From NCBI GenBank assembly GCA_003142095.1, contig PLON01000054.1, forward strand, positions 55,514-119,513: a DNA stretch of 64,000 bases, in the 5' to 3' direction. The DNA is from Acidimicrobiaceae bacterium. GTDB taxonomy: Bacteria; Actinomycetota; Acidimicrobiia; Acidimicrobiales; RAAP-2. The notes under the pieces were generated by a model, which made no database searches, was not told where the DNA came from, and worked only from the letters and a program-made list of their open reading frames with translations. Shown here one piece after another: positions 7,254 to 46,395 of the stretch (position 1 is its first letter; every line of letters starts with the position of its first letter). A program made the translations under genes and the position numbers.

Positions 7254-7943
7254 TCAGACTCCTCGAAGCTCGGTCGACTTCGATGCCGCAGAGGCCAGTT
7301 GAGCGTGCTTCGCTTTGGCTAGGTCGACGATCACCTCTTCGTCCGACGTCTGTTCGAAGTTCTCGTACCACTCCCCAACCGCAAACGGCCCTCCCGTACG
7401 TACAAGGGACACAACGCGGTCTGCCACCCTTTCAACTCGCTTCGCCGCGTCAACACTGGTGACCGGCGTCGCCACGATGACTCGCGCCGCTCCTCGCGTT
7501 CGAGCCACCTCACACGCCGCGCGAGCCGTGGCTCCAGTCGCGAGACCGTCGTCAACGATGATGACAACTCTTCCTTCAAGGTTCACGGGTGATTCGCCCT
7601 GGCGATAGAGACGAATCCGTCGTTCAAGTTCGACACGCTCATCAGCCACCACGCGAGCGAACTGCGCCTCGCTCACCCCTAACGCCTCTACGGTGCCGTG
7701 CTCTACGACCAAGATTCCGTCCTCACCGATTGCTCCCATCGCGAACTCGGGGTGTGAGGGAACTCCCACCTTTCGCACCACAATCACGTCCAACGGACAG
7801 TGCAGGACACGGGCCACTTCGTACGCCACGGGCACGCCGCCACGTGGAAGACCGATCACCACCGCCCTACAGTCACCAAACGCGCCCACCAGCCGCGTAC
7901 CTAATCGACACCCCGCGTCTTTTCGATCGATGAACTGCGCCAT
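7254..7943 (-). CDS. Phosphoribosyltransferase family protein
   Basis: This 229-aa protein has a type I phosphoribosyltransferase fold. Visible motifs are VIGLPRGGVPVAYEVA near residue 30 and the PRPP-binding loop VVIIVDDGLATGATARAA near residue 130. The substrate base cannot be deduced. It starts at ATG 7943, with a DosR-type box 32-50 bp upstream, and is followed by the erythromycin-esterase gene in the same operon. The pair corresponds to the two halves of mycobacterial Rv2030c, here encoded as separate proteins. Confidence 0.88.
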   Translation of the reverse strand: MAQFIDRKDAGCRLGTRLVGAFGDCRAVVIGLPRGGVPVAYEVARVLHCPLDVIVVRKVGVPSHPEFAMGAIGEDGILVVEHGTVEALGVSEAQFARVVADERVELERRIRLYRQGESPVNLEGRVVIIVDDGLATGATARAACEVARTRGAARVIVATPVTSVDAAKRVERVADRVVSLVRTGGPFAVGEWYENFEQTSDEEVIVDLAKAKHAQLASAASKSTELRGV

Positions 7944-7974
7944 GCTCCAGGCATACTGGTCTTGAACGAGGAAT

Positions 7975-7993
7975 CACTAGGGGCCAATGTCAC
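7975..7993 (-). promoter_or_regulatory. DosR-type box upstream of the phosphoribosyltransferase operon
   Basis: On the minus strand it reads GTGACATTGGCCCCTAGTG, 32 bp from the ATG at 7943. It fits the window consensus RKGACYWWWGDCCC with a one-base shift in the right half. Confidence 0.55.
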
Positions 7994-8143
7994 TTTCTCG
8001 AGTCGCCGGCAACGACCCCATCACGCTTGACGAGCGCCGACACGGTCAGTGCAGAAGTTCTTTGAAGACGTCCCCGAATCCATGACCCAGAATTCGTAAC
8101 CGGACTCATCACGTGCGCACATGGTCGTCGTAGCCCGCAATTA

Positions 8144-8450
8144 ATGACGCCCACATCCATAATCGAAGTCGATGAGTTGACGCGCGTCTACGGTACCGGC
8201 GAAGTCAAGGTTCGGGCCCTTCACGATGTGCCGTTAAGGATGCTCCAGGGCGACATGGTGCGCATCATGGGAAAGAGTGGATCGGGAAAATCCACGCTGC
8301 TTCATCAGCTTGGTCTGCTCGACAGACCATCATCGGGCCGTGTCGTCCTTAATGGGGTGGACGTGACAGCAATAAGAGAAGGGCCAAGACGAACTCTTGG
8401 AAATGCTCGAACTTGCCGGGCGCGCTCGACACCAACCCTCTGAGCTCTCC
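8144..8450 (+). pseudogene. Decayed ABC-transporter ATPase (LolD/MacB type)
   Basis: The first 80 or so codons read as an export-type ABC ATPase: IIEVDELTRVYGTGEVKVRA, Walker A GKSGSGKST, and HQLGLLDRPSSGRVVLNGVDV. The frame then breaks. In another frame, at about 8393-8450, a downstream piece of the same family is visible (LEMLELAGRARHQPSELS, the segment just before the signature motif), after which homology stops. The Q-loop, signature and Walker B are missing. An internal deletion with frameshift plus 3' loss is the simplest explanation. Confidence 0.7.
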
Positions 8451-8667
8451 AAGTCCTCAACGTCGCGACCACGATCCACGAACTTCAACACCGCGGATAT
8501 CTTCCATTCGCCGTCGGATCATTCACGAGAAAGAATTGAACCTCGCTAAGCGCGAAAGAACGCAGATCTCGGACTTCGCTATTCAACCAAAAACGCTGAG
8601 TGTCAGACGAACTCCACTCGACACCAACGAAGTGCCAAACGGTCAGGGTCCTGACGTAGGGGCATCG

Positions 8668-9165: not shown

Positions 9166-9289
9166 TCGGCGTCCGAATATGTGCCACGGTCATGCAAACA
9201 CCGTCATTGTGGACCATCCACTGACGGGGCCATCGTATGACAGAGGTGGTGCCAAAACGTCATGCTATCGGTGGCGTCGTGGAGGTCAT

Positions 9290-9305
9290 AGAGTCATAAG
9301 TCCCT
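9290..9305. promoter_or_regulatory. Possible DosR-type box
   Basis: The reverse complement reads AGGGACTTATGACTCT. It is about 200 bp from either neighbouring start, so it may be an auxiliary site. Confidence 0.35.
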
Positions 9306-9464
9306 CCGTTGATGACTTGCGTCTTGTTTCGCGGTCGCACGACGTCGTGTTCGCTCCACAACTTTTCGACACCGTGTGCACTAGAGCGAGCACGTCTAAA
9401 AATTCATTTGGACGCTTCGTCGCCTCTTTAGTCACGTGACACTCGTTAACGAAGCCCGAACAGG

Positions 9465-9485
9465 TTAGGACTATTGACCCTATTC
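9465..9485. promoter_or_regulatory. DosR-type box upstream of the nitroreductase
   Basis: The core reads TTAGGACTATTGACCCTATT. It lies 83 bp upstream of the ATG at 9568. Confidence 0.6.
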
Positions 9486-9567: not shown

Positions 9568-10206
9568 ATGCTCATGATGACATCGCTTTCCGCGCGAGCC
9601 GAGGTTCTCGAAGTTCCCCGTTTTTCCGGGCCCGAAGTGATGACGGACGTGTTTGAGGCGATTTATCGACGTCGAGCGGTTCGCAACTACTCCAACGAAC
9701 CCGTGAGCCGAGCCGAGATTGAGGGCGTCCTCGAGGCGGCAATCATGGCGCCGAGCGCCATCAATGCTCAGCCATGGGCTTTCGTCGTACTCCAAGGTCA
9801 CGAGGAGCTCGCTCGATACGCGAGAGAGGGGCGAGATCTGCTGACAAATACTGCGGGCGACGGGACTCCCCTGACGGGGTCCAATGAATTGCTCCAGATG
9901 GTATCGGCTCCGAATTTCGAGTTGTTTCACGGAGCTCCTGCAGTGATCATCATTTACGCCACCAACGCGAATGCGGTGGCCGAGTGCTTTCTCGCAGCTC
10001 AAAACCTGATGTTGGCCGCGTGGGCGATGGGGCTCGGGACCTGCCCGATTGGGCTCGCCCGATCGCTCTTTGAGCAAGAACCTGTAAAGGTGGAACTGAA
10101 AATTCCGCCGAGCTGGTCCCACGCACTTGCTATAGCCGTGGGGCACCCGTCCGGTGAGACAGCCCCGACTCCACGTCGCGCTGCGCTCGTGGTGACCTGG
10201 CGATGA
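9568..10206 (+). CDS. Nitroreductase family protein
   Basis: This 212-aa FMN-dependent nitroreductase-fold protein shows RRRAVRNYSNEPVSRAEIEG and MAPSAINAQPWAFVVL, the N-terminal FMN-phosphate and ribityl contacts, then AAQNLMLAAWAMGLGTCPIG and a C-terminal AIAVGHPSGE. The physiological substrate is not predictable. Nitroreductases (Acg and relatives) are prominent DosR-regulon members in mycobacteria, but this protein has the standard short form rather than the long Acg form. A DosR-type box lies 83 bp upstream. Start choice is uncertain among 9568, 9577 and 9640. Confidence 0.88.
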   Translation: MLMMTSLSARAEVLEVPRFSGPEVMTDVFEAIYRRRAVRNYSNEPVSRAEIEGVLEAAIMAPSAINAQPWAFVVLQGHEELARYAREGRDLLTNTAGDGTPLTGSNELLQMVSAPNFELFHGAPAVIIIYATNANAVAECFLAAQNLMLAAWAMGLGTCPIGLARSLFEQEPVKVELKIPPSWSHALAIAVGHPSGETAPTPRRAALVVTWR

Positions 10207-10543
10207 AAGTCGCACACTTAGACGTTGTGCGTGGCCCCGAATGATCGGATTCTAAATCCGCTCGTTTCGGCCGAGAACGAGGTGCGTCAATGACCCCGAC
10301 GGAGATACGGACGCGGCCCGTCCGGGCCAAGGTGAGCGGAGTTTGCCCAAATGGAGACGCGGATCAGATTTCACGGAGTTCGCTGGGAGAACGTGCGAGA
10401 GGGAGCCTTCTCGTGGGCTCTCGCTCGTGGCACAGCACGTACAAGATCGGCACATTAGGGACTAAAGCCCGTATCGAAATCGGCTCGTGTCGAGGTACGT
10501 TCACATCACGGCAGATTCTTCGCTCACGAAAGGCAACGCGACC
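10207..10543. other. Intergenic region with hairpins and a DosR-type box
   Basis: Downstream of the nitroreductase are two short inverted repeats, CGGATTCTAAATCCG (10242-10256) and CGTTTCGGCCGAGAACG shortly after. They have no U-tract. A near-perfect DosR box follows at 10456-10477. No gene was found. Confidence 0.5.
10456..10477. promoter_or_regulatory. DosR-type box upstream of the pyruvate:ferredoxin oxidoreductase operon
   Basis: The core TTAGGGACTAAAGCCCGTAT is among the best matches in the window. It ends 67 bp before the ATG at 10544. Confidence 0.65.
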
Positions 10544-11134
10544 ATGTTTCAAGTTCGTATTCATGGCAGAGGTGGTCAGGGAGTCGTCACGGCGGCCGAA
10601 ATTCTCTCAGTCGCGGCCTTTGACGAGGGGCGTCACGCTCAAGCCTTCCCGAGTTTCGGATCCGAGCGAACCGGAGCCCCCGTGGTTTCGTTTTGTCGTA
10701 TCGACGACCGCGAAATCCGAACTCACGAACCAGTCATGGAACCCGACGCCGTCATCATCCAAGATGTCACCCTGATTCATCAAGTAGATCTCTTTTCGGG
10801 ACTGTCGCCCGACGGTTATGTCCTTATTAATACGTCTCGCGGCTTTTCTGAACTCGGCTTTGGCAACTTCTTCAATGAGTATCGCTCCGAGCGGCTCATG
10901 ACGTGCCCGGCAACCGATATCGCCCTCGAACAGATCGGCCGCCCCTTTCCCAACGCCGCTCTGCTCGGCGGATTTGCTGCGCTCACTGGTGAGATTACGT
11001 TGGCCGCAATCGATAAGGCGGTGCGCGAACACTTCGTGGGCTCCGTGGGCGAACGCAACGCAGCGGCCGCAGCGACCGCCTTCGACTACGTGACGTCGAA
11101 AGCAGGGGAGGTCGCTCGTGCTTCGACAAATTGA
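10544..11134 (+). CDS. porG: 2-oxoacid (pyruvate):ferredoxin oxidoreductase gamma subunit
   Basis: This 196-aa protein has the pyruvate/ketoisovalerate oxidoreductase gamma domain. It opens FQVRIHGRGGQGVVTAAEIL and contains SFGSERTGAPVVSFCR, both typical of the POR gamma subunit that binds CoA. The ATG at 10544 is preferred over an upstream frame because homology begins exactly there. It overlaps the alpha gene by 17 bases. As first gene of a four-gene operon behind a DosR-type box, it is expected to be induced under low oxygen. Confidence 0.92.
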   Translation: MFQVRIHGRGGQGVVTAAEILSVAAFDEGRHAQAFPSFGSERTGAPVVSFCRIDDREIRTHEPVMEPDAVIIQDVTLIHQVDLFSGLSPDGYVLINTSRGFSELGFGNFFNEYRSERLMTCPATDIALEQIGRPFPNAALLGGFAALTGEITLAAIDKAVREHFVGSVGERNAAAAATAFDYVTSKAGEVARASTN

Positions 11135-12374
11135 AGGCTCGAGAGCCATCGCTGAGACAGTGGCCCTTTGTCGTCCCGAGGTCGTGTGTGCATACCCGAT
11201 CTCACCTCAAACCCACATCATCGAAGCGGTGGGCGCAATGGTGAAGGCAGGCACGCTCGCTCCCTGTGAGTTCATCAACGTCGAGTCCGAGTTCGCGGCT
11301 ATGTCCGTAGCGATCGGTGCGTCGGCGACCGGCGCTCGGGCTTACACCGCGACGGCGAGCCAGGGACTTCTCTTCATGATGGAAGCCGTGTACAACGCCG
11401 CGGGACTCGGTCTGCCGATCGTGATGACCCTTGCGAACCGGGCCATCGGGGCGCCGATCAACATCTGGAACGACCACAGCGACGCCATGGCCGTGCGCGA
11501 TTCCGGTTGGATTCAACTTTTCGCCGAGAGCAATCAAGAGGCCGCTGACCTACACGTCCAGGCGTTCCTTCTCGCCGAAGAACTCTCGGTCCCGGTCATG
11601 GTGTGCGTCGACGGCTTCATTTTGACCCACGCGGTCGAAGGAATCGACCTGCTCGAACAGTCCTTCGTCGATTCGTTCCTCCCCCCCTACGAACCCCGTC
11701 AGGTGCTCGACACGAAGGCGCCGGTATCAATTGGTGCAATGGTCGGGCCTGAGGCGTTCGAAGAGGTGCGCTACCTCGCCCACCTGCGTCAACTCGACGC
11801 ACTGGAACGAATTCCCGAGATTGCCCAAGAGTTCTTCGAGGCGACGGGACGTGAGAGCGGTGGGCTTGTACGCCCCTACCGAATAGAAGACGCCGAGGTC
11901 ATCGTCGTGGCGATGGGCTCAGTCCTCGGGACCTTGAAAGATACGGTCGATGAGCGCCGCAACGCGGGCGAGCTCGTCGGCGTACTAGGCGTGACGTCGT
12001 TTCGACCCTTTCCGAGCGAAGCGGTGCGTAATGCTCTCGCGAACGCTTCTCAGGTCGTCGTCCTCGAAAAGGCCTTCAGCATCGGCGCCGGCGGCGTGCT
12101 TTCGACGGATATCGCCATCGCGATGCACCGTGATGAGACCATTCTTCGCACCGTCGTCGCGGGTCTTGGAGGACGAGCCATCACCCGACGCTCCCTGGAA
12201 AAGGTCCTTGAAGACGCATCGCACAACCAGCTTGCGCCACTCACGTTCCTCGACCTCGATCACGAAGCCGTCGATCGAGAACGCGCCCGCATGCAGGCGA
12301 CTCGACGTTCGGGGCCGTCGGCAGAAAACCTACTCCGTGATCGCAACACGGTGTCCCAGGGGGCGAAAGAATGA
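11118..12374 (+). CDS. porA: Pyruvate:ferredoxin oxidoreductase alpha subunit
   Basis: This 418-aa alpha subunit is part of the thiamine-diphosphate enzyme that cleaves pyruvate (or a related 2-oxoacid) to acetyl-CoA, CO2 and reduced ferredoxin. Motifs are CAYPISPQTHIIEAV at the N terminus, FINVESEFAAMSVAIGASATGARAYTATASQG split over residues 50-85, and ANRAIGAPINIWNDHSD. Domain II near residue 260 starts AEVIVVAMGSVLGTLKD. It is the usual length for separate-subunit PORs. The gene overlaps both neighbours. Confidence 0.92.
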   Translation: MLRQIEGSRAIAETVALCRPEVVCAYPISPQTHIIEAVGAMVKAGTLAPCEFINVESEFAAMSVAIGASATGARAYTATASQGLLFMMEAVYNAAGLGLPIVMTLANRAIGAPINIWNDHSDAMAVRDSGWIQLFAESNQEAADLHVQAFLLAEELSVPVMVCVDGFILTHAVEGIDLLEQSFVDSFLPPYEPRQVLDTKAPVSIGAMVGPEAFEEVRYLAHLRQLDALERIPEIAQEFFEATGRESGGLVRPYRIEDAEVIVVAMGSVLGTLKDTVDERRNAGELVGVLGVTSFRPFPSEAVRNALANASQVVVLEKAFSIGAGGVLSTDIAIAMHRDETILRTVVAGLGGRAITRRSLEKVLEDASHNQLAPLTFLDLDHEAVDRERARMQATRRSGPSAENLLRDRNTVSQGAKE

Positions 12375-13384
12375 CGAGCCAACGTGTCCACTTCTACCAA
12401 ATCGGAAGTTTTGCCGTCGGCAACCGACTCCTCGACCAAGAAGAACGCACGGTCCAAGCTCAAGCGGATCGGGCAAACTCTATCGACTCCGGCCATCGCG
12501 CGTGTCAGGGTTGTGGCGAAGCGCTCGGGGCGCGCTACGCCCTCGACGCGGCGATGCGCGCCACGAACGGCCAAATCGTCGCGGTCAACGCGACTGGATG
12601 TCTCGAAGTCTTCTCGACGCCCTATCCCGAAACGTCGTGGAGAATTCCCTGGCTGCACTCGCTCTTTGGCAACGCCCCCGCCGTGGCGACCGGCGTCGCC
12701 GCCGCGCTTCGGGTCAAGGGCGTAAAAGACGTCCGCGTGGTCGCCCAGGCGGGCGACGGAGGCACAGTGGATATCGGCTTTGGATGTCTGTCAGGGATGT
12801 TCGAACGCAATGACGATGTGCTCTTTATCTGCTACGACAATCAGGGCTACATGAACACGGGCGTGCAACGCTCGGCGGCGACACCTCCGGCCGCGCGCAC
12901 CGCCACGACCGAAGCCGTGGGACCCGAGCCGGGCAACACCTTCGGTCAGGGCAAGGACCTTCCCCGCATCGCGATGGCACACAATATTCCCTACGTCGCC
13001 ACGGCGACGGTCGCCGATCTTCACGACCTCGAGCGGAAAGTTGAGCGCGCCATGGAAATCCGCGGAGCGCGCTACTTGCACATCCTCGTCCCCTGTCCGC
13101 TCGGATGGGGATCAGCGTCAGATGAAACCATCCACGTCGCCCGCCTCGCCAAGGAGTCGGGTCTCTTTCCGGTCTTTGAAGCCGAAGGCGGCGTTATTCG
13201 GTCCGTTTCACGCATTCGCCGACCGGTTCCCGTCGAGGAGTACCTGTCACTACAGCGGCGCTTCGCCCACCTCTTTGGCGCTCATCCTCGCCCCGATGTC
13301 ATCGCGCGCATTCAGTCGATGGCCGACGAGAACATTGCGCGCTACGGGCTCTTCGCGCCAGAGTCCGCCGAGGAGTCAGTATGA
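12371..13384 (+). CDS. porB: Pyruvate:ferredoxin oxidoreductase beta subunit
   Basis: This 337-aa TPP-binding beta subunit begins, after a 40-residue extension, with HRACQGCGEALGARYAL, whose CxxC plus later Cys residues ligate a 4Fe-4S cluster. VAQAGDGGTVDIGFGCLSG carries the GDG...N TPP/Mg motif, completed by CYDNQGYMNTGVQRS. The ATGA overlap with porA gives stoichiometric expression. The subunit set alpha, beta, gamma plus a ferredoxin domain fused to the next gene completes the enzyme. Confidence 0.92.
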   Translation: MTSQRVHFYQIGSFAVGNRLLDQEERTVQAQADRANSIDSGHRACQGCGEALGARYALDAAMRATNGQIVAVNATGCLEVFSTPYPETSWRIPWLHSLFGNAPAVATGVAAALRVKGVKDVRVVAQAGDGGTVDIGFGCLSGMFERNDDVLFICYDNQGYMNTGVQRSAATPPAARTATTEAVGPEPGNTFGQGKDLPRIAMAHNIPYVATATVADLHDLERKVERAMEIRGARYLHILVPCPLGWGSASDETIHVARLAKESGLFPVFEAEGGVIRSVSRIRRPVPVEEYLSLQRRFAHLFGAHPRPDVIARIQSMADENIARYGLFAPESAEESV

Positions 13385-15006
13385 CAATCCCCTTCGCGAT
13401 CACTCTGGACGTCGGCTCTAGTCGAGCGAACCACACTGGTTCCTGGCGCGTCGAACGTCCCGTCTATGTCGACCGACTGCCGCCGTGTAACGACGCGTGT
13501 CCCGCCGGCGAGAACATCCAGGGCTGGCTCTATGACGCTGAAGCTGGAAACTACGAGGCCGCGTGGCACAAGCTCGTCGAAGAGAATCCATTTCCCGCCA
13601 TCATGGGTCGAGTCTGCTTTCATCCGTGCGAGACCGCGTGCAATCGCGTCCAAGTCGACGAAGCAGTCGGCATCAATGCCGTTGAGCGCTTTCTTGGCGA
13701 CCTCGCCCTCGAAAAGGGCTGGACCTTGCCTGAACCAGGTTCTGACACCGGAAAACGCGTCCTCGTTGTTGGTGCGGGTCCAGCGGGGCTGAGTGCCACC
13801 TATCACCTACGCCGACTCGGCCATCACGTTCGCCTCGTCGATTCCGCCTCGCGTCTCGGCGGCATGATGCACTACGGCATTCCCGCCTATCGTCTCCCGC
13901 GTACAGTGCTTGACGCCGAGATCGCCCGCGTCATTGCGATGGGCGTCGAGATCCAACTCAATCACGTGGTTCACGACGTGGAACAAGAGCGACGCGACGG
14001 CAAGTTCGACGCAGTGTTTCTCGCTGTCGGCGCCCAGATTGGCAAGCGTGTAGACATCCCGGCGGGCGACTCCTCTCGCGTCATCGACGCCGTGAACTTC
14101 CTGCACCACGTCGCCAACGACGATCCACCGCTGCTCGGACGGCGTGTCGTCATCTACGGCGGCGGTGATACCGCCTTTGACGCCGCGCGTACCGCGCGCC
14201 GCCTCGGAGCGACTGACGCCGTCATCGTCTACCGCCGTAATCGAGAACGCATGGGCGCGAGCGGCGAAGAGTTAGAACAGGCACTTGGTGAAGGCGTCAC
14301 CGTACGCTGGCTCTCGACGGTCAACAAATTCGACGGCGATCACATCGTGCTCGAAAAGATGAAGCTCAACGCAGACGGCTTCCCCGAGCCGACCGGCCAG
14401 TTCGAAGAACTCGGCGCCGACTCACTCGTCCTCGCCCTCGGACAGGACACCGATCTCTCACTGCTCGAGCACGCCGACGACGTCGCCGTACGTGACGGTT
14501 CCGTTGAGGTGCTCGACTCAATGATGGCGAGCCCGTCAGGCATCTTCGCGGGGGGTGACGCCGTCCCGGCCCAGCGCACGGCGACGGTGGCCATCGGACA
14601 CGGCAAGCGTGCCGCGCACGGCATTGACGACTTCGTGACGGGGCGCGTTGCCGAACCAAAGGAGCGCCACGAACTCGCTTCGTTCGAACGACTCAACACC
14701 TGGTACTACGCGGATGCGCCGCGCACCGAACGACCGGAGCTTGAGCGAATACGACGACAGACGAACTTCGAGGAGGTCATTGGCGGCCTCAGTGAAGACA
14801 ACGCGCTCTTTGAAGCTCGTCGTTGCATGTCGTGCGGCAACTGCTTTGAGTGCGATAACTGTCTTGGCGTCTGTCCGGACAACGCCGTCATCAAGCTCGG
14901 GGACAATATGCGTTACCAGTTCGACTACGACTTCTGCAAGGGATGCGGCATCTGTGTGAAGGAGTGCCCCTGTGGCGCCATTGAAATGGTTCCCGAGCGA
15001 AACTGA
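13381..15006 (+). CDS. GltD-like FAD/NAD(P) oxidoreductase fused to a POR-delta-type 2[4Fe-4S] ferredoxin domain
   Basis: This 541-aa fusion has an N-terminal iron-sulfur segment of the glutamate-synthase small-subunit type (LPPCNDACPAGENIQGWL, then GRVCFHPCETACNR). It continues with an FAD site VLVVGAGPAGLSATYHLRRL near residue 125 and an NAD(P) site VVIYGGGDTAFDAARTARRL near 260. The C terminus (about 480-541) holds two 4Fe-4S motifs, CMSCGNCFECDNCLGVCP and CKGCGICVKECPCG, as in POR delta. As the last gene of the POR operon (ATGA overlap), it probably takes electrons from the POR and passes them to NAD(P)+. That electron route is inference; the domains are visible. Confidence 0.88.
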   Translation: MTIPFAITLDVGSSRANHTGSWRVERPVYVDRLPPCNDACPAGENIQGWLYDAEAGNYEAAWHKLVEENPFPAIMGRVCFHPCETACNRVQVDEAVGINAVERFLGDLALEKGWTLPEPGSDTGKRVLVVGAGPAGLSATYHLRRLGHHVRLVDSASRLGGMMHYGIPAYRLPRTVLDAEIARVIAMGVEIQLNHVVHDVEQERRDGKFDAVFLAVGAQIGKRVDIPAGDSSRVIDAVNFLHHVANDDPPLLGRRVVIYGGGDTAFDAARTARRLGATDAVIVYRRNRERMGASGEELEQALGEGVTVRWLSTVNKFDGDHIVLEKMKLNADGFPEPTGQFEELGADSLVLALGQDTDLSLLEHADDVAVRDGSVEVLDSMMASPSGIFAGGDAVPAQRTATVAIGHGKRAAHGIDDFVTGRVAEPKERHELASFERLNTWYYADAPRTERPELERIRRQTNFEEVIGGLSEDNALFEARRCMSCGNCFECDNCLGVCPDNAVIKLGDNMRYQFDYDFCKGCGICVKECPCGAIEMVPERN

Positions 15007-33338: not shown

Positions 33339-33339
33339 G

Positions 33340-39451: not shown

Positions 39452-39454
39452 CCC

Positions 39455-40498
39455 GTGGTCCTTGTTGTCAACCAGGCCTATGACGACTCCGGCCACGAAG
39501 ACTCCGGCCACCCCGAACGCCCAGAACGCGTCTCCGCCGTGCGCGCGGGCATCGACGATCTTCATCTGGGCAGCGACCTCATCGTCGTCCCGGATCGCGT
39601 CGTCACGCGCGAAGAGTTGACTCGCGTTCACGACAGCGGCTACCTAGAAGAACTAGCGGCCTACTGCTACGAAGGCGGCGGTGACCTCGATCAAGATACC
39701 TACGCGACTTTCAGCTCGTGGCCAGTCGCCAAACAAGCGGCCGGCGCGGGCCTGGCAGTTATCGAAGAACTCCACCGTCGCGGCGACGGCGTCGGCTTCG
39801 TCGTGACCCGACCGCCCGGTCACCACGCGCTCCGTGATCGCGCAATGGGCTTCTGTCTCCTGAACAACATCGCAGTCGCCGCCGCCGCACTTCGCAGTTT
39901 GGGCGAACGAGTCTTGATCGTTGACTGGGACGTCCACCACGGCAACGGCACGCAGGAGATCTTCTGGAACGACGCCGAGGTGCTCTACGTCTCAACCCAT
40001 CAGTGGCCGCTCTTTCCCGGCAGCGGCGCCGCGAGCGAGGTTGGTGGCCGACTCGCTATAGATCGCACCGTTAATATCCCCCTTTCTCCGGGGGCCACGG
40101 GCGATATTCTTCGCCAAGCCTTTGACGACATCGCCGCACCGGTCATTGACTCCTTCAGCCCGACTTGGGTCTTGGTCTCCGCGGGCTTCGACGCCCATCG
40201 AGCAGACCCAATGGGTGATCTTCACCTCACGAGCAACGACTTCGCCGCAGTGGCGAGCAGCGTCGCGAACTTCGTCCCGCGACCCGGCCGCTTGGCGATG
40301 TTTCTCGAAGGCGGCTACGACCTCGACGCTTTGCGTTCCAGCGTCCATGCGACCCTTCGCTCGGTTCTCGGCGAGGCCGTTGCCACCGAGCAATCTTCGC
40401 GTGGAGAGCCGAGAGGCGATTATGTCACCCGCGTCCAACGTGATCGCTTGGCCGCTATTGAAGCGTTGTACTCGAGCCACGACGAAGAGAGCACGTGA
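39455..40498 (+). CDS. Histone-deacetylase family protein (class II-like amidohydrolase)
   Basis: This 347-aa zinc amidohydrolase of the HDAC/acetoin-utilisation/acetylpolyamine superfamily has the family motifs HPERPERVSAVRAGID, VTRPPGHHALRDRAMGFCLL, VDWDVHHGNGTQEIFW, SAGFDAHRADPMGD and FLEGGYDLDAL. The Zn ligands (Asp, His, Asp) and the HH pair are present. It probably deacetylates protein lysines or small acetyl-amines. It sits between a GNAT gene (3-base gap) and a Usp gene (overlapping), forming an apparent operon. Confidence 0.9.
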   Translation: MVLVVNQAYDDSGHEDSGHPERPERVSAVRAGIDDLHLGSDLIVVPDRVVTREELTRVHDSGYLEELAAYCYEGGGDLDQDTYATFSSWPVAKQAAGAGLAVIEELHRRGDGVGFVVTRPPGHHALRDRAMGFCLLNNIAVAAAALRSLGERVLIVDWDVHHGNGTQEIFWNDAEVLYVSTHQWPLFPGSGAASEVGGRLAIDRTVNIPLSPGATGDILRQAFDDIAAPVIDSFSPTWVLVSAGFDAHRADPMGDLHLTSNDFAAVASSVANFVPRPGRLAMFLEGGYDLDALRSSVHATLRSVLGEAVATEQSSRGEPRGDYVTRVQRDRLAAIEALYSSHDEEST

Positions 40499-40920
40499 TG
40501 AACACGCTACGAACCATTGCGGTGGGCTACGACGGATCTTCTGGCTCCGAGGCTGCCGTTCGCTGGAGTCTTACACTCGCGAACGCGACCCATTCCACGG
40601 TCATCGTTCTGCACGCCATCGGATTGCTCGAGCATCTGTATACGGCGTACCCGCGTGACGTCACGCCACCCGCCATCGTGGCGATGGCCAAGGAGTTGGC
40701 CTTCGACGAGCAACGCCTTCACTGGCACGTCGATGACGGCGACGCGTGCTCGGTACTGTTGCGCGCTGGTTCGTCCCCTCTCGACGCGGATCTCCTCGTT
40801 GTCGGCTCACGGGGGCGAGGACAACGCACGGGAATGCTGCTCGGCAGCACGACTCTCGAAGTCGCCGAACATACCTTGACGCCCCTGGTCATTGTGCCGT
40901 CACGCTTCGAGGAAGACTGA
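40498..40920 (+). CDS. Universal stress protein (UspA family)
   Basis: This 140-aa single-domain Usp has the strand-1 motif RTIAVGYDGSSGSEAAVRWS and the ATP-binding loop VVGSRGRGQRTGMLLGSTTL, so it is nucleotide-binding. Its ATG overlaps the deacetylase stop (GTGATGA, with a GTG at 40495 as alternative). It is the last gene of the GNAT-deacetylase-usp operon. Direct juxtaposition upstream of dosR recalls the Rv3134c (Usp)-dosR order in M. tuberculosis, although a remnant and another ORF intervene here. Confidence 0.9.
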   Translation: MNTLRTIAVGYDGSSGSEAAVRWSLTLANATHSTVIVLHAIGLLEHLYTAYPRDVTPPAIVAMAKELAFDEQRLHWHVDDGDACSVLLRAGSSPLDADLLVVGSRGRGQRTGMLLGSTTLEVAEHTLTPLVIVPSRFEED

Positions 40921-41036: not shown

Positions 41037-41099
41037 ATAGTCATTTACGTACCGCGTATCGATTGGGCGCTAGGGGCGAAACTGGCATTTCGAGAAGAA

Positions 41100-41119
41100 G
41101 TGCCATAAGTCCCTATCGA
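41100..41119. promoter_or_regulatory. DosR-type box upstream of the dosR leader ORF
   Basis: GTGCCATAAGTCCCTATCGA, 66 bp before the ATG at 41185. A looser match (CTAGGGGCGAAACTGGCA) begins at 41070. Together they suggest autoregulation of dosR. Confidence 0.5.
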
Positions 41120-41184: not shown

Positions 41185-41466
41185 ATGCAGCGACAACTGG
41201 TTCCATTTCAGATTGCCGAGGGGGAAAGCCGTCCTCTCGATATTCACTGCGCCGGATACGGCGAACCTGGATCGAGTGGGGCCGACGACGTCTCTACGCT
41301 CGCACCGTTCCTCAACTGCGCATCAGCGGACGAATCGGCGAAGGTCCGCACTCGTAAAGAATTGAAGTTGCTCGCTGCGATGATGGCTCATCCTTCGGGC
41401 AGAGTTGGCCGCAACATGGAGACGACACGGAAAGGAGTCAATCATGCTGAGCGTATTCCTAGTTGA
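41185..41466 (+). CDS. Small hypothetical protein coupled to dosR
   Basis: This 93-codon ORF has a strong AAGGAG ribosome site, an ATG at 41185, and a 23-base overlap with dosR. The product starts MQRQLVPFQIAEGESRPLD and contains SAKVRTRKELKLLAAMMAH; no domain or membrane segment was recognised. In M. tuberculosis the gene ahead of dosR is a Usp (Rv3134c), so this differs. It could be a genuine co-regulated protein or a leader that sets dosR translation. Confidence 0.5.
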   Translation: MQRQLVPFQIAEGESRPLDIHCAGYGEPGSSGADDVSTLAPFLNCASADESAKVRTRKELKLLAAMMAHPSGRVGRNMETTRKGVNHAERIPS

Positions 41467-42100
41467 TGATCACGAGGTCGTGCGGCGCGGCGTGCGAGAG
41501 CTGCTAGAGAACGAGGATGACATCTCAGTGATCGGTGAAGCTGGCACGCAAGCGGAAGCGCTCGCTCTCATACCCGAGGCGAACCCCGACGTCGTGCTCC
41601 TAGACGTTCGCTTGCCCGACGGTGACGGTATCGAGATATGTCGAGAGGTTCGTTCGTCGACGCCGGACATCGCCTGTTTGATGTTGACGTCCTTCGCGGA
41701 CGATGAGGCGCTTCTCGGAGCCGTCATTGCCGGTGCCTCAGGCTACGTATTGAAGCAAATCCGGGGCAACGACCTGGTCGCTTCGGTGCGCCGCGCCGCG
41801 AACGGCGAATCGTTGCTTGACCCGTTGATGGTGGCGAAGGCTCGCGCGCGACTTGGACGGAACGTTGAAGATGAGCGACTGCGGCCCCTTTCCCCGCAAG
41901 AGCGACGAATACTTGATTTGATCTCTGAAGGTATGACCAATCGAGAGATTGCCGAAACGATGTTCCTTGCAGAGAAGACGGTGAGGAACTACGTCTCGAA
42001 CCTCCTTTTGAAGATGGGCGTGAAACACCGAACAGAAGCGGCAGTCTTCGCGGTGCGCGTCGCCGAGCGACAGAGGAAATCCTTTTCGGGCCCCGAATAG
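41444..42100 (+). CDS. dosR: DosR/DevR-type response regulator (NarL/LuxR family)
   Basis: This 218-aa regulator is close to mycobacterial DosR throughout. The receiver starts MLSVFLVDDHEVVRRGVREL with acidic D8/D9 and phospho-acceptor D54 in VVLLDVRLPDGDGIEICREV, followed by AGASGYVLKQI. The LuxR-type helix-turn-helix at about 145-205 includes LSPQERRILDLISEGMTNRE and MFLAEKTVRNYVSNLLLKMG. The DNA-contact residues known in M. tuberculosis DosR (K179, K182, N183) appear as K, R, N. ATG 41444 has AAAGGAG upstream. It probably binds the repeated box of this window. Confidence 0.92.
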   Translation: MLSVFLVDDHEVVRRGVRELLENEDDISVIGEAGTQAEALALIPEANPDVVLLDVRLPDGDGIEICREVRSSTPDIACLMLTSFADDEALLGAVIAGASGYVLKQIRGNDLVASVRRAANGESLLDPLMVAKARARLGRNVEDERLRPLSPQERRILDLISEGMTNREIAETMFLAEKTVRNYVSNLLLKMGVKHRTEAAVFAVRVAERQRKSFSGPE

Positions 42101-42171
42101 AGGTCACACTGATGGCGTGATCCAAGCAACTTCGACGCCGAGGCTTAACAGTACCTTCAGAAAATCAACTT

Positions 42172-42192
42172 GTGACATATGTCCCTATCGAC
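42172..42192. promoter_or_regulatory. DosR-type box with no coding gene downstream
   Basis: The core GTGACATATGTCCCTATCGA shows very good agreement with the boxes at 20720 and 41100. The next element downstream is a terminator. Confidence 0.55.
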
Positions 42193-42399: not shown

Positions 42400-43914
42400 T
42401 CAGTTCATGCGATCAAAGGGAGAAAGGGGAACTCGCCACTCGACAATGGTTCCCTTCGGGTTCCTTCGGCGGACGGTACAGGTGCCCCCAAGATTCTCAG
42501 CCCTGGTTGCCATATTGCGCATTCCATTTCCGGCAGATGGCCCGTCGCCAATGCCGACACCGTCGTCGATCAGCGAGAAAGAGAGCCACTCCCCCTCGAT
42601 AGCAACGACGACGTCAATTTTCGACGCGTGTGCGTGTCGCCCGACATTGGAGAGGCCTTCGCCGAATACATGGAGGAGATGTTCGCTCACGATCTCTGGG
42701 ACGGCGAAGTCGACGGGGCCCAGAAACGCGATCCGCGGGAGAACGCCGAGTTCATGATGGTATCGATCGGCGAGTCTGAGCATCTCTTCGCGGAGTCCAC
42801 TCGCAGCCTCATTGCGGCCCGGAAGTCGAAAAATCGTGTTGCGAATCTGTCGAATGACATCGTCCAGGCTTTCCACCGCAGCGGAAATACGGTCCCCCAC
42901 TGAACCGGTGACCGAGGCTCCCATGGCCTGGAGTGACATGCCGAGCGCGAAGAGTTCCTGAATTACGGTGTCGTGCATGTCTCGAGCAATGCGTTCATCC
43001 TCGGCGACGATGCTGAGTCGATCGATTTCCGCGCGGACCGATCCCATCTCAATGGCCGTGGCGGCGGCACCGGCGAACACTTCAGCGAAGGCCACGTCAT
43101 GTGGTTGAAAGGGAGTTTGCCCGTGCACCCGCCCCAGCACGAGGGTACCGAGGCGTCGCTGGTCAGCGATGAAGGGCACGTACAACCCTGGTCCCAGGTC
43201 GAGGTCGACCACGCCGGGAGGTACATTGTCGGCCGTCGAGAGGTCCTCGATCACGTCGGGCTCACCAGAACGCATGACCTCCGCCGAACGGCTCGTGTCC
43301 GCTGAGAGGAGGACGCCGAGCAAGAACTCCGTTCCCTTCCCATCGACCGAGACAATTTCGAATTGATTCGTGGTTGTAGGCATCACAATCCACGCGGCGT
43401 CAGAGTGACAGAGCAGTCGAGCACGCTCGACGACGAGTGGGAGAATCTCTTGCATTTGCGCGCCGGCCAGCAATTGTTTGGTAATTTCGTTGACGGCGTT
43501 CAATCGGTCAAGCGCTCGCCGGCGCGCTCGTGCGTCACGAACGAAAGCGGCGACGTAGAGCGCGTCACCGAGTTTGACCGGGGTCAAACTGACGTCGATT
43601 GGAAACTCCGCTCCGTCGCGACGCCGTCCCGCGAGATCGAGGCCAACACCCATTTCTCGAGGGTGGGGCGCTCCAAAAAAGCGCCGAAGGTGATCACCGT
43701 GTTGGTCCCTTCGACCATCGGGCACCAAGACGTCAATCGACTGGCCAATGAGATCCTCGGGACGGTATCCAAAAAGAGTTGTCACGGACGGACTGGTCAG
43801 CACGATGCGATGAGTCGCATCAATCACGATGATCGCGTCAGGACTGGCCGAGAAGATTTCGCGGAAAAGGACTTCAGGATCCAACTTCGTCGAGGATGCC
43901 TTACTATCGCTCAC
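42400..43914 (-). CDS. dosS: DosS/DevS-like sensor histidine kinase (PAS-GAF-HisKA_3-HATPase)
   Basis: This 504-aa cytoplasmic kinase has a PAS domain (about 15-125), a GAF domain (about 145-295), dimerisation/phospho-acceptor segment EDERIARDMHDTVIQELFAL (His in RDMHDT, about residue 318) and a HATPase with GEGLSNVGRHAHAS and DDGVGIGDGPSAGNGM. The back half is very like mycobacterial DosS/DosT, but the first GAF (haem) domain is replaced by PAS. The PAS has QHGDHLRRFF, whose first His lies where FixL has its haem ligand, so an oxygen-sensing haem is possible but unproven. GTG start, convergent with dosR. Confidence 0.88.
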   Translation of the reverse strand: MSDSKASSTKLDPEVLFREIFSASPDAIIVIDATHRIVLTSPSVTTLFGYRPEDLIGQSIDVLVPDGRRDQHGDHLRRFFGAPHPREMGVGLDLAGRRRDGAEFPIDVSLTPVKLGDALYVAAFVRDARARRRALDRLNAVNEITKQLLAGAQMQEILPLVVERARLLCHSDAAWIVMPTTTNQFEIVSVDGKGTEFLLGVLLSADTSRSAEVMRSGEPDVIEDLSTADNVPPGVVDLDLGPGLYVPFIADQRRLGTLVLGRVHGQTPFQPHDVAFAEVFAGAAATAIEMGSVRAEIDRLSIVAEDERIARDMHDTVIQELFALGMSLQAMGASVTGSVGDRISAAVESLDDVIRQIRNTIFRLPGRNEAASGLREEMLRLADRYHHELGVLPRIAFLGPVDFAVPEIVSEHLLHVFGEGLSNVGRHAHASKIDVVVAIEGEWLSFSLIDDGVGIGDGPSAGNGMRNMATRAENLGGTCTVRRRNPKGTIVEWRVPLSPFDRMN

Positions 43915-44353
43915 AACGGCTCACTTCCGTTCGCTAGCTGCTCGTGTCCTCGTTCATGCGAAGGCCCGCAAACCTGCATTCCAGGCTCGACAGCGACTCT
44001 AGTTTCGCACAAGACACGTCATCGTTGAGACGGTCGCCGGGATGTAACCACTGCTTTGTTCACATTTCCAATGTGGTCCAGCGTCAATTTTGCGTTCAAT
44101 CATCAATTTTCGCACTCTGTCACAACTCCCGTGGTTGGCGCCAGTGAGGCGGGCGTCAACGCCGCAGGAACGAAGTCGCCCGCAAGGGAATTTCAATACT
44201 GGGGAAAGATCGTACCCATCGATTGGAATGTTCGAACTCGCCCTTCTTTTCGCGTTTTGGTCGCTTGATCTGCGAGAGATTGCGCCGTTGCACGTGTTTC
44301 TGACGGCTTCTATCGTCCAGCCTGGTAATACTGCGAAAAGGACCATTGTCCCT
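43915..44353. other. Gene-poor, lower-GC stretch upstream of dosS
   Basis: These 439 bp contain the dosS promoter side and a DosR-type box at the right end. No gene was recognised. GC looks lower than in flanking genes, consistent with decayed sequence. Confidence 0.4.
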
Positions 44354-44358
44354 ATGCG
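44338..44358. promoter_or_regulatory. DosR-type box overlapping a GNAT remnant
   Basis: The core AAGGACCATTGTCCCTATGC is a near-perfect dyad (GGACCATTGTCCC). It covers the first possible ATG of the remnant, so its original target is unclear. Confidence 0.5.
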
Positions 44359-44542: not shown

Positions 44543-44547
44543 TTCCT

Positions 44548-45507
44548 TCAGTCCTTCGTCTGGTTCTGGTAGTGCTCTCGCCAGATGATGCGGTAGACCT
44601 TGGACTTTCGTGGGATCGAGCGCAGGCCCGGGATGAAGGGCATCAAGGTGAGCCCGACGGTCAGAAGAAGCATGATGGCCAGGACCTCAACGTCGCCGTT
44701 GGAGCTGCTGTTCATCGGCGATACCTGGTACCAGAAGGTGTAGAGCCAGAGCCAAGCCTGTCCGGGCCAACTGCCCGTCTCGTTCATCATGCCCCATTGG
44801 CTGCCCGTGAGGTGATCGGCCTGAGCCACTTGACCCAGGTAGCTGCCGTCGGAGATGAACAGCAGGGAGTCGGTGTAGTCCGTGGTATAGAAGCTGTCAC
44901 CCGTGAGCAGGGCCTCGTCCAACGCTCCGCTGCGGGCCATCTGGGTCAGGTCGTTGATCATCAGTGGAACCGGTCCGGCGTCGGATGCGTTGACGACGAC
45001 CTGATTGTTGAGGAACTTCATGTTTGCCGCGGCCTTCGTGTAGTTGTTCAACCACGCGGTTTTGGCCGACGCCGAGGCGTTTTGGAACACGGCCAGATCC
45101 TTGTCGAGGGCCGGCTGTCCGGGCAGCGCCTTGAGCGGATTGATCACGAACACCTTGGCGGTGTTGATCGGGATGTGCACGCCGATCCAGTACTCGAGCT
45201 TGAGCGGCCCTAGCTGCTGGCTCGCGCTCGAGTTCTGGCTGTTGTACGGCGCTCCATACGTCGCGGTGCCAGACGTACCGTTCAACTCGCTGAGAGCCGT
45301 GGTGGCGAAGTCGACCGGCGCGGTGGTGGACCATGACTTGAGGGTGATCGCCGGGTCGTCGGGTGAGCCGAAGACCACCGCGAGGATCAAGGTCAGTATC
45401 AGGACCACCGCGATGGCAATGCTGCCTTCCTTGATGATGTCGTAAGGGCTATGGCCGCCCTTCCATTCGGGCGCGTCAACGTCTGGGCGAAATGCTTTCT
45501 TGCTCAT
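44548..45507 (-). CDS. Cytochrome b C-terminal (subunit IV-like) protein with large extracytoplasmic insertion
   Basis: This 319-aa protein forms the second half of a split cytochrome b. An N-terminal transmembrane helix (IAIAVVLILTLILAVVFGSP) is followed by about 200 residues predicted outside the membrane (LNGTSGTATYGAPYN, GPLKLEYWIGVHIPINTAKV) and C-terminal helices ending LLLTVGLTLMPFIPGLRSIP. The PEWY motif of typical Qo sites was not found. The ATGA overlap with the cytochrome b gene shows they act together. Similar split, insertion-bearing forms occur in menaquinol-oxidising complexes; the exact role is inferred. Confidence 0.65.
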   Translation of the reverse strand: MSKKAFRPDVDAPEWKGGHSPYDIIKEGSIAIAVVLILTLILAVVFGSPDDPAITLKSWSTTAPVDFATTALSELNGTSGTATYGAPYNSQNSSASQQLGPLKLEYWIGVHIPINTAKVFVINPLKALPGQPALDKDLAVFQNASASAKTAWLNNYTKAAANMKFLNNQVVVNASDAGPVPLMINDLTQMARSGALDEALLTGDSFYTTDYTDSLLFISDGSYLGQVAQADHLTGSQWGMMNETGSWPGQAWLWLYTFWYQVSPMNSSSNGDVEVLAIMLLLTVGLTLMPFIPGLRSIPRKSKVYRIIWREHYQNQTKD

Positions 45508-46130
45508 TGGACCGCTCCTGCGTTCTCTTCAATTGGTGGTACTACGCCCTTGATGCGAACCAGCACGACGTGAACGCCGACCAGCAGAACGAGGATGAGG
45601 GGCATCAGGACGATGTGCCACATGAGCATCTGGCCACCGTTCAAGAGGTTGAAGAAGGCCCCGCCGCCGCTGCCGTTGATGGCGTCCTTCGCCTGGGTGG
45701 AGATCCACTGCGAGTCGAAGTTGCTCTGGGATACATAACCGGTCAACGCCGTCACGATCGAGCAGAGGAACAGCACCATGCCCGTTATCCACGTGAGGGC
45801 CCGGCCACCACGCCACGCGGCCATGAAGTACTTGCCCCACAGGTGGATCACCATGGAGAAGAAGAAGATCTCCACGCTCCACAGGTGCATGGAGTTGACG
45901 AAGTGGCCGACGTTCGAGGTGTGCCACCACGCCGGACCGAAGATGGCCAGCACGCACCCCGTGGCGATGACCACGACGAGGGAGGAGATCGTGGCGACGC
46001 CGAAGACGTAGATCCACGACGAGACGTAACTGGGCTGGGTATCGGGCAGCATCTTCTCCGGGGGAAGCTTGCCGAAGGTGCGCTTACGAAGACGGGTCGT
46101 CCACTGACGATCGATTTCGGAGGTACTCAC
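45504..46130 (-). CDS. Cytochrome b (b6-type N-terminal subunit)
   Basis: This 208-aa diheme cytochrome b has four transmembrane helices. Helix B holds the His pair MHLWSVEIFFFSMVIHLWG (14-residue spacing) and helix D the pair WHIVLMPLILVLLVGVHVV (15-residue spacing, as in b6f rather than bc1). It should carry quinol electrons across the membrane with the downstream subunit. No Rieske protein or cytochrome c gene is in the window. GTG 46130 overlaps the stop of a 59-aa membrane protein gene (GTGA). A DosR-type box lies upstream of that small gene. Confidence 0.85.
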   Translation of the reverse strand: MSTSEIDRQWTTRLRKRTFGKLPPEKMLPDTQPSYVSSWIYVFGVATISSLVVVIATGCVLAIFGPAWWHTSNVGHFVNSMHLWSVEIFFFSMVIHLWGKYFMAAWRGGRALTWITGMVLFLCSIVTALTGYVSQSNFDSQWISTQAKDAINGSGGGAFFNLLNGGQMLMWHIVLMPLILVLLVGVHVVLVRIKGVVPPIEENAGAVQ

Positions 46131-46306
46131 TGGTTCTCCTTACGACGACGGCGACCGGGGAACGGTAGTAGCAGCGCGCCGATGAAGGTCGCGAGCATCA
46201 GGATGATGACGATTGCGTTAGCGGCGCTGATATCAAAAATATGCCACTGAAAATAGTGATCAGGGTGATTGAGATTAATCAGCGCCCCAATGAGGAATGA
46301 GCTCAT
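46127..46306 (-). CDS. 59-aa single-pass membrane protein preceding cytochrome b
   Basis: This short gene has an ATG at 46306 and a TGA overlapping the cytochrome b GTG. It begins MSSFLIGALINLNHPDHYFQ, then WHIFDIS, one transmembrane helix (ANAIVIILMLATFIGALLLP) and a basic cytoplasmic tail FPGRRRRKENQ. A diverged copy sits in inverted orientation at 46418-46585 and keeps the same helix and tail, so the sequence was once under selection. It is probably a small subunit or assembly factor of the cytochrome b complex. The DosR-type box lies 67 bp upstream. Confidence 0.7.
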   Translation of the reverse strand: MSSFLIGALINLNHPDHYFQWHIFDISAANAIVIILMLATFIGALLLPFPGRRRRKENQ

Positions 46307-46372
46307 ACCAAATATCCATTTCTCCGTGAAGGCACAGTTGAGTTGATGTTACACACACATAGGAAAAACAAC

Positions 46373-46395
46373 TAAGGACTAAAGACCCTATTAAC
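46373..46395. promoter_or_regulatory. DosR-type box between the cytochrome b operon and its inverted remnant
   Basis: The core AAGGACTAAAGACCCTATTA is 67 bp from the intact minus-strand start (46306) and 23 bp from the decayed plus-strand ATG (46418). Confidence 0.6.

What the first reader, a model, noticed from the sequence alone, without database searches (positions are those of the whole stretch)
7254..46395. A DosR-like dormancy regulon packed into one ~40-kb region
At least 16 copies of a near-palindrome RKGACYWWWGDCCCTA occur in this region. Most lie 30-90 bp upstream of a start: the PRTase/esterase pair, eRF1-like protein, nitroreductase, POR operon, GNAT-ACD fusion, pfkA, gap, eno operon, DUF3040, arc operon, mgtA, dosR and the cytochrome b operon. 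The mycobacterial DosR box is TTSGGGACTWWAGTCCCSAA, and a close DosR homologue is encoded in the middle. The gene content parallels the M. tuberculosis regulon (Usp, nitroreductase, Rv2030c-like pair, PfkB, P-type ATPase) but adds complete fermentation routes. Such clustering of a whole regulon with its regulator is striking.
Basis: partly seen in the sequence, partly recalled or inferred. Interest (0 to 1): 0.95.

Follow-up and report, generated by a model that had tools for sequence, protein, structure and literature searches.

The report
Clustered DosR-type anaerobic energy regulon
A 40-kb stretch of an Acidimicrobiaceae-like actinobacterium carries sixteen DNA sites matching the binding element of DosR, the low-oxygen regulator known from tuberculosis bacteria, around a DosR-like gene; the sites likely let one predicted oxygen-sensing pair switch on fermentation, ATP-supply and stress genes together.

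Summary
The motif is real and DosR-type. Blind palindromic EM on the region's promoters returns TAGGGACtATaGTCCCTA. Sixteen sites of 11.8 bits or more lie in 7.9-46.4 kb; fourteen stand before 17 of 19 operons. Held-out tests agree: a matrix of published Streptomyces OsdR sites, orthologous promoters in two relatives, cydA promoters of other genomes (8 of 14), and deacetylase (6 of 8) and cytochrome b (7 of 9) promoters near other dosR genes. "Whole regulon in one place" is too strong: 16 of 25 strong genome-wide sites lie elsewhere, some before hsp20 and cydAB, and a second DosR exists. Clustering is known from S. coelicolor OsdR. New here: near-complete packing of anaerobic ATP supply (glycolysis, POR plus ADP-forming ligase, arginine deiminase); a PAS-GAF kinase with a FixL-like PAS; acetyltransferase and deacetylase genes under boxes; a natural Arg at DosR position 182, whose acetylation silences M. 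tuberculosis DosR. Binding, heme and hypoxic induction are untested predictions.

The parts
7978..7995 (.). DosR-type box 17.0 bits, 43 bp before PRTase/erythromycin-esterase pair
5919..7943 (-). PRTase (7254-7943) and erythromycin-esterase-like (5919-7247) pair
   Evidence: Pfam PF00156, PF05139
8668..9093 (-).
9289..9306 (.). DosR-type box 15.3 bits between the 8668- gene and nitroreductase
9465..9482 (.). DosR-type box 17.5 bits before nitroreductase
9568..10206 (+). nitroreductase-family protein
   Evidence: Pfam PF00881 9e-31
10456..10473 (.). DosR-type box 18.4 bits before POR operon
10544..15006 (+). pyruvate:ferredoxin oxidoreductase gamma, alpha, beta plus GltD-like flavoprotein with ferredoxin domains
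15448..18168 (-). GNAT + ADP-forming acyl-CoA ligase fusion, catalytic-type His451 conserved 70 of 70 aligned
18220..18237 (.). DosR-type box 19.8 bits, shared ACD / pfkA
18267..18284 (.). DosR-type box 18.1 bits, shared ACD / pfkA
18339..19322 (+). 6-phosphofructokinase (PfkA)
19445..20458 (-). PfkB-family kinase (box 20718 is 268 bp upstream, shared with gap)
20718..20735 (.). DosR-type box 18.7 bits before gap
20809..21816 (+). glyceraldehyde-3-phosphate dehydrogenase
21892..26856 (-). enolase, pyruvate phosphate dikinase, phosphoglycerate kinase operon
26938..26955 (.). DosR-type box 13.5 bits before eno
28230..28544 (-). DUF3040 protein
28601..28618 (.). DosR-type box 12.8 bits, 65 bp before DUF3040 (also 65 bp in fen_803)
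28724..29203 (-). universal stress protein (box 29408 is 213 bp upstream, shared with arc operon)
29408..29425 (.). DosR-type box 20.8 bits before arc operon
29589..34281 (+). arginine deiminase operon: amino acid permease, arginine deiminase, ornithine carbamoyltransferase, carbamate kinase
34304..35848 (-). MFS transporter
35882..35899 (.). DosR-type box 11.8 bits, shared MFS / mgtA; not seen at these genes in fen_803
35951..38653 (+). MgtA-type magnesium-translocating P-type ATPase
38676..38693 (.). DosR-type box 16.8 bits before GNAT-deacetylase-Usp operon
38822..40920 (+). GNAT acetyltransferase, HDAC6-like (class-II-type) deacetylase, universal stress protein
41098..41115 (.). DosR-type box 18.1 bits, 338 bp before dosR (a 93-codon ORF lies between)
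41447..42100 (+). DosR (DosR1): response regulator, Asp54/Thr82/Lys104, Lys179, Asn183 kept; Lys182 is Arg
42170..42187 (.). DosR-type box 19.7 bits with no gene called downstream; hairpin and T-run follow at about 42332-42376
42400..43914 (-). DosS-like histidine kinase: FixL-like PAS, GAF, HisKA_3, DosT-like ATPase; no box of its own
44337..44354 (.). DosR-type box 19.1 bits just before a short GNAT-like fragment
44548..46130 (-). split cytochrome b pair
   Evidence: second subunit without Pfam match
46373..46390 (.). DosR-type box 18.5 bits before the cytochrome b operon (59-aa ORF from 46306 on - strand between)

Best explanation
A DosR-family response regulator encoded in the middle of the region is predicted to bind sixteen palindromic boxes (TAGGGAC-N4-GTCCCTA), fourteen of which lie before 17 of the cluster's 19 operons, and would switch these operons on when oxygen is low. 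Shown here: the boxes, their positions, the conservation of many of them in relatives and the DosR-type recognition helix. Inferred: the PAS-GAF histidine kinase beside it senses oxygen or redox state through its FixL-like PAS, probably with heme, and phosphorylates the regulator, which activates transcription from boxes mostly 40-180 bp upstream of starts. The induced set would replace respiration with substrate-level ATP: glycolysis down to pyruvate, POR plus the ADP-forming ligase domain of the GNAT fusion to acetate, and the arginine deiminase route. Universal stress proteins and a nitroreductase come with it, and off-cluster targets (cydAB, HSP20) would add high-affinity respiration and a chaperone. 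The co-regulated acetyltransferases and deacetylase would set protein acetylation in the same state.
For: Blind EM recovers the DosR box. Promoter bias: 15 hits in 7.7 kb intergenic against 3 in 56 kb coding (in-sample). Genome-wide 26 hits against 2 for the reversed pattern; 16 distinct sites lie outside the window. A matrix of published OsdR half-sites puts 11 of its top 25 window hits in intergenic DNA, 0 of 500 permuted matrices reach that. fen_803 keeps boxes before the orthologous nitroreductase, POR, ACD/pfkA, gap, eno, arcD, DUF3040, GNAT and dosR genes, most within 15 bp of the window's spacing; palsa_652 keeps them before the esterase, arcD and GNAT genes, and its cytochrome b genes, on another contig, have a box about 245 bp upstream. 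cydA promoters: 9 of 15 at 12 bits or more (8 of 14 without the own genome), those nine at -43 to -63, permuted mean 0.10, maximum 2. Promoters of HDAC (6 of 8) and cytochrome b (7 of 9) near other dosR genes. DosR: receiver residues, Lys179 and Asn183 kept in all 110 rows. Off-cluster boxes precede HSP20 and cydAB.
Against: No expression or binding data. A second DosR (61% identical) in the same genome could own some or all sites. The kinase gene has no box. The MFS/mgtA box is missing at both genes in fen_803 (best 3.1 and 0.9 bits), and in palsa_652 the 8668-type gene has none (5.9) and dosR none within 400 bp (0.7; boxes lie before the gene upstream of it). dosR promoters of other loci are not clearly boxed: 11 of 78, permuted maximum 24. 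The HDAC and cytochrome b loci include close relatives and are not independent. Four same-genus genomes without a close DosR still have 15 box hits against 4 control hits. Boxes 42170 and 44337 lead to no clear gene. FixL's distal Arg220 position is Leu in 61 of 71 kinases, so heme and O2 sensing are unproven. A blind dyad count did not single the motif out from shuffles.
Confidence: 0.78

Rival explanations
1. The boxes are read mainly by the second DosR (DosR2, contig C67), which has its own relatives in several same-genus genomes, and DosR1 is a minor or specialised copy.
For: DosR2 is encoded in the same genome and its clade holds rows from G004, G008, G012, G014, G042 and L080. A 20.2-bit box lies 102 bp before the gene convergent with it.
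Against: DosR1 lies inside the cluster beside a kinase; regulator and kinase stay linked to GNAT2-HDAC-usp2 in palsa_652, and the regulator also in fen_803, where the contig ends before a kinase could be seen. No kinase was recognised among the neighbours of DosR2 listed; of these only three were family-scanned.
Confidence: 0.25
2. The cluster is a set of genes kept together by co-inheritance, and the palindromes are sites of another NarL/LuxR-type regulator or structural repeats, not a hypoxia regulon.
For: Four other LuxR-type (GerE) genes exist in the genome besides the two DosR genes. No binding data.
Against: The box has the half-site and 4-bp spacing of the DosR/OsdR element. It goes with the cytochrome b genes to another contig in palsa_652 and recurs before cydA in other families. 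dosR lies within 0.7 kb of cydA, with a box before cydA, in G005, G006 and G026.
Confidence: 0.06
3. The regulon is DosR-type but the signal is NO, CO or cell redox rather than O2, so it is a general respiration-arrest response.
For: The PAS has Leu in place of FixL's distal Arg in 61 of 71 homologues. Mycobacterial DosRS also answers CO and NO (PMC10034137, abstract passage).
Against: cydAB and fermentation genes under the boxes fit low oxygen.
Confidence: 0.3

Closest known systems
Streptomyces coelicolor OsdR/OsdK regulon (SCO0167-SCO0219 region), PMC5069765
   Same: DosR-type regulator, the same type of 16-bp palindrome (AGGGCCGATCGGCCCT), many sites at -36 to -158, clustered targets around the regulator including Usp, nitroreductase, PPDK and alcohol dehydrogenase
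   Different: There 8 sites cover 20 of 22 genes and include nitrate reductase. Here 13 sites cover 27 of 29 genes and a 14th the PRTase/esterase operon, with glycolysis, POR, ADP-forming ligase, arginine deiminase, deacetylase and cytochrome b; A/T-rich spacer; PAS-GAF kinase
Mycobacterium tuberculosis DosR/DevR-DosS/DosT regulon
   Same: Regulator (1.7e-68), box (EMSA primer TTGGGGACTAAAGTCCCTAA in PMC5999986), Usp, nitroreductase, HSP20, PRTase/esterase, PfkB and P-type ATPase parallels (gene list partly recalled)
   Different: Kinase sensor is PAS-GAF, not GAF-GAF (recalled for DosS/DosT); Arg at 182 in place of the acetylatable Lys; fermentation routes under the boxes
FixL (heme-PAS oxygen sensor kinase)
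   Same: PAS matches FixL heme-PAS structures (5.7e-19); His aligned to the proximal ligand (ligand role recalled) in 70 of 71
   Different: Position of FixL's distal Arg220 (recalled) is Leu; followed by GAF and a HisKA_3/DosT-like catalytic part
Pat/PatZ-type GNAT-acyl-CoA-ligase protein acetyltransferases
   Same: GNAT plus NDP-forming acyl-CoA ligase domains; solved protein acetyltransferases 9it0/9isq match the ligase part at 2e-93 and 3e-92
   Different: GNAT at the N end and the ligase's SHT histidine conserved in 70 of 70 aligned, consistent with an active ADP-forming ligase; a common family, 6,040 homologues at 1e-50 among the candidates scored

Membership tests
DosR/DevR response regulator | Receiver plus GerE/LuxR HTH with closest match to DevR | tested here: met
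   Pfam PF00072, PF00196; best PDB hit 3c3w DevR 1.7e-68, next VraR 2.7e-42
DosR/DevR response regulator | Phospho-acceptor Asp54 and switch residues Thr82, Lys104 (roles recalled) | tested here: met
   Kept in all 110 rows, window included
DosR/DevR response regulator | Base-contact residues Lys179, Lys182, Asn183 (set recalled; Lys182 also in PMC5999986) | tested here: inconclusive
   Lys179 and Asn183 kept; 182 is Arg in 3 of 110 rows (window, its own copy L081, fen_803). In M. tuberculosis DosR, K182R still binds DNA (PMC5861037, PMC5999986, passages)
DosR regulon | Palindrome GGGAC-N4-GTCCC upstream of target operons | tested here: met
DosR regulon | Regulator binds the boxes in vitro | not testable with these tools
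   no binding data
DosR regulon | Induction under hypoxia, NO or CO | not testable with these tools
   no expression data
DosR regulon | Hallmark targets HSP20 and universal stress proteins | tested here: met
   Box 101 bp before HSP20 on C13 and 96 bp in fen_803; both Usp genes of the region in a boxed operon or divergent from one
DosS/DosT sensor kinase | Two GAF domains, first binding heme (recalled) | tested here: not met
   PAS + one GAF + HisKA_3 + ATPase; ATPase matches DosT (2.6e-13). May work like DosS, but the sensor layout differs
FixL-type heme PAS | Proximal heme His | tested here: met
   His72, 70 of 71; heme itself not tested
FixL-type heme PAS | Distal Arg220 | tested here: not met
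   Leu in window; Leu 61, Arg 5 of 71

The most novel reading that the evidence does not exclude
This lineage has turned the DosR dormancy regulon into a compact anaerobic power module: one two-component pair with a FixL-like PAS sensor commands every substrate-level ATP route in the cluster, and the module carries its own acetyl-CoA-to-acetate ligase, lysine acetyltransferases and deacetylase. DosR1 bears Arg at position 182, the site whose acetylation silences M. tuberculosis DosR, so the module would stay on however much acetyl-CoA the fermentation makes: an acetylation-proof DosR that escapes feedback from its own pathway.
Probability: 0.25. Interest if true: 0.8.

Novelty: new variant of a known kind. 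Interest (0 to 1): 0.6.

Why it matters
DosR is best known from mycobacterial latency. Here a regulator and box of the same type sit outside mycobacteria and streptomycetes, before a self-contained fermentation and ATP-supply set. If confirmed, this would suggest that anaerobic energy supply is a wider, perhaps older, role of DosR in Actinobacteria, with host latency a special use. The compact cluster makes the whole circuit, sensor to targets, easy to clone and test. The natural Arg182 variant and the co-regulated acetyltransferase/deacetylase genes make acetylation control of DosR testable across species.

Tried and rejected
Blind enumeration of all 5-mer dyads in the region did not separate GGGAC-N4-GTCCC from shuffles: TAGGG-N8-CCCTA ranked fourth at z 6.9, and the ten shuffles printed reached 7.5. 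The sites are imperfect palindromes, so the promoter-restricted EM was the better test.

DosR presence against box count in the genus gave no clean contrast: 20 genomes with a close DosR, 156 box hits and 43 control hits; 4 without (two no match, two only weak matches), 15 and 4. Among the 41 genomes the three with most boxes (own 26, G015 17, G008 16) are those with the GNAT-ACD protein at 80% identity or more.

Foldseek on the kinase model (mean pLDDT 85, pTM 0.50) listed mostly bacteriophytochromes and LOV kinases at low TM-scores and says nothing on heme.

A DosR-controlled small RNA from the 42170 box (box, then hairpin with T-run; fold z -4.9) was considered, since M. tuberculosis has the DosR-regulated DrrS (PMC5360333, search listing only). 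A blastn of the spacer against the fetched loci found only the own genome, palsa_652 included in the search; left open.

V/A-type ATPase genes follow the PRTase/esterase pair on the same strand after a 72-bp gap and could belong to the same transcript. The subunits sought were not found beside the pair in palsa_652 or in the other stretches read of fen_803 (only weak 26-32% matches elsewhere); not claimed.

GNAT-ACD promoters in other genomes are weakly boxed: 2 of 8 and 3 of 10 with enough upstream sequence, one of the 3 being fen_803. Rfam: 0 matches at gathering scores. Sigma-70 scan of 40.8-46.7 kb: none.

Rows dropped: kinase alignment A1 used 71 sequences: the window's kinase, 67 of the 120 listed (318 found) and 3 from loci; kinases scanned with Pfam 10 of 59 found; ACD alignment 70 of 120 listed; DosR tree 110 rows after dropping hits under 50% identity, under 180 aa, with stops or duplicated; one search leaves out L001 and L002 and upstream pieces under 200 bases.

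Literature: the searches held no paper with all terms; the listings of 48, 50, 86 and 87 (not every paper found is listed) showed no title or abstract start on a DosR regulon with these fermentation routes. Read: PMC5069765 outline, passages, sections 6, 7 and 12; PMC10034137, PMC13284343, PMC5999986 and PMC5861037 passages only.

Full report
Setting. The window is the right part (55514-119513) of a 119.5-kb contig of a 2.64-Mb, 77-contig genome. The nearest named DosR matches are Acidimicrobiaceae MAGs isolate fen_803 (88%) and palsa_652 (83%). L001 and L002 lie in G041 and G042; G008 shows the same box places as G041, so I take G008 as fen_803 and G042 as palsa_652.

Observation. A palindrome-constrained EM given only the promoters of 5.9-46.7 kb returned TAGGGACtATaGTCCCTA with log-likelihood 54.2 against 32.7-41.0 in 12 shuffled sets. 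This has the half-site and spacing of the DosR/OsdR element: M. tuberculosis EMSA primer TTGGGGACTAAAGTCCCTAA (PMC5999986), S. coelicolor AGGGCCGATCGGCCCT (PMC5069765). At 10 bits, 15 hits fall in 7,671 bp intergenic and 3 in 56,312 bp coding. With my gene calls, 16 of 18 operons (27 of 29 genes) inside the region have a box within 360 bp, shared divergent sites included; the DUF6629 gene (a 9.6-bit site) and the kinase do not. I left out one doubtful ORF at 44228. The PRTase/esterase pair is counted apart, because it merges with downstream ATPase genes, and has a box 43 bp before it: 17 of 19 in all, by fourteen boxes. These counts are in-sample for the matrix.

Held-out tests. (a) A half-site matrix from published S. 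coelicolor sites puts 11 of its top 25 window hits in intergenic DNA, permuted mean 1.93, 0 of 500 reach it; the full matrix 9 of 25, 2 of 500. (b) Genome-wide, 26 hits against 2 for the reversed pattern; 16 distinct sites lie outside the window. Among genes behind them are HSP20, cydAB, a DoxX-type gene and a second nitroreductase; further matrix hits stand before a zinc alcohol dehydrogenase and a GH65 protein, and several hits have no gene called behind them. (c) In fen_803 the orthologous POR, gap and DUF3040 boxes stand at the same spacing as in the window (79, 82, 65 bp); in palsa_652 the cytochrome b genes lie on another contig and have a box at a similar distance. Not kept: the MFS/mgtA box in fen_803; boxes at the 8668-type gene and directly before dosR in palsa_652, where two boxes stand before a histidine decarboxylase gene upstream of dosR. 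(d) cydA promoters: 9 of 15 at 12 bits or more, 8 of 14 without the own genome, permuted mean 0.10, maximum 2. (e) Near other dosR genes, HDAC promoters 6 of 8 and cytochrome b promoters 7 of 9 carry a box of 10 bits or more, permuted means 0.29 and 0.34, maxima 3 and 4; some of these loci are close relatives of each other. Against: dosR promoters 11 of 78 with a permuted maximum of 24, GNAT-ACD promoters 2 of 8 and 3 of 10.

Linkage. Among 80 dosR loci with up to 10-kb flanks, relatives of window genes recur: HDAC in 10, cytochrome b in 9, GNAT-ACD in 8, usp1 in 6, GNAT2 in 5 (L001 and L002 included).

Regulator. DosR1 keeps the receiver residues and Lys179/Asn183; position 182 is Arg in the window and fen_803, Lys in the other 107 of 110 rows, palsa_652 included (the window counts twice, as L081). 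In M. tuberculosis, acetylation of Lys182 abolishes DNA binding and K182R still binds (PMC5999986, PMC5861037; passages). DosR1 with its fen_803 and palsa_652 orthologues forms one clade; DosR2 lies in another. No sequence evidence decides which paralogue reads which box.

Sensor. The kinase is PAS-GAF-HisKA_3-ATPase. Its PAS matches FixL heme-PAS structures best (5.7e-19) and its ATPase matches DosT (2.6e-13). His72, aligned to FixL's proximal ligand, is kept in 70 of 71; FixL Arg220 is Leu in 61 and Arg in 5. Of ten kinases near other dosR genes that I scanned, one (palsa_652) is PAS-GAF, four have PAS without a GAF match, four a single GAF and one two GAFs. Heme binding is a prediction.

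Metabolic reading (inference from families). Glycolysis from PfkA to pyruvate with PPDK; POR; a GNAT-ADP-forming ligase fusion whose SHT histidine is kept in 70 of 70 and whose best match among solved structures is an ADP-forming 4-hydroxybutyrate-CoA ligase; an arginine deiminase operon with deiminase, ornithine carbamoyltransferase and carbamate kinase. Together these would give ATP without respiration. The GNAT-deacetylase-Usp operon adds likely control of protein acetylation.

Verdict. A real DosR-type regulon by sequence, unusually dense around its regulator, but extending beyond it. It is a new variant of a known kind. Confidence is high for the box regulon, moderate for low-oxygen control, low for the acetylation-escape idea.

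Noticed in passing
46373-46992: An inverted, decayed partial copy of the cytochrome b operon (59-codon-type ORF with an in-frame stop from 46418+, truncated cytochrome b start at 46594+) faces the intact operon across the same box.
   Followed up: partly
42170-42385: Strong box (19.7 bits) followed by a hairpin and T-run with no gene called: possible DosR-controlled small RNA; not found in the fetched loci of relatives.
   Followed up: partly
162-5846 and L113:13120-15600: V/A-type ATPase genes and a further gene run on directly after the boxed PRTase/esterase pair on the same strand.
   Followed up: partly
L132:7133-8946: In palsa_652 dosR follows a histidine decarboxylase (PF02329) gene headed by two boxes (16.7 and 20.2 bits).
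   Followed up: partly
L123:14249-16023: Box (18.8 bits) about 390 bp before a pyridoxal-dependent decarboxylase gene on C66, with a PRTase-hydrolase fusion near by.
   Followed up: partly
G005:C73:94248-96355; G006:C43:33455-35140; G026:C1:3984456-3987107: dosR lies within 0.7 kb of cydA in three other genomes, with a box before cydA.
   Followed up: yes
47118-50525: Ku gene followed by LigD phosphoesterase-ligase and LigD primase-polymerase genes just right of the cluster: a non-homologous end joining set without boxes.
   Followed up: partly
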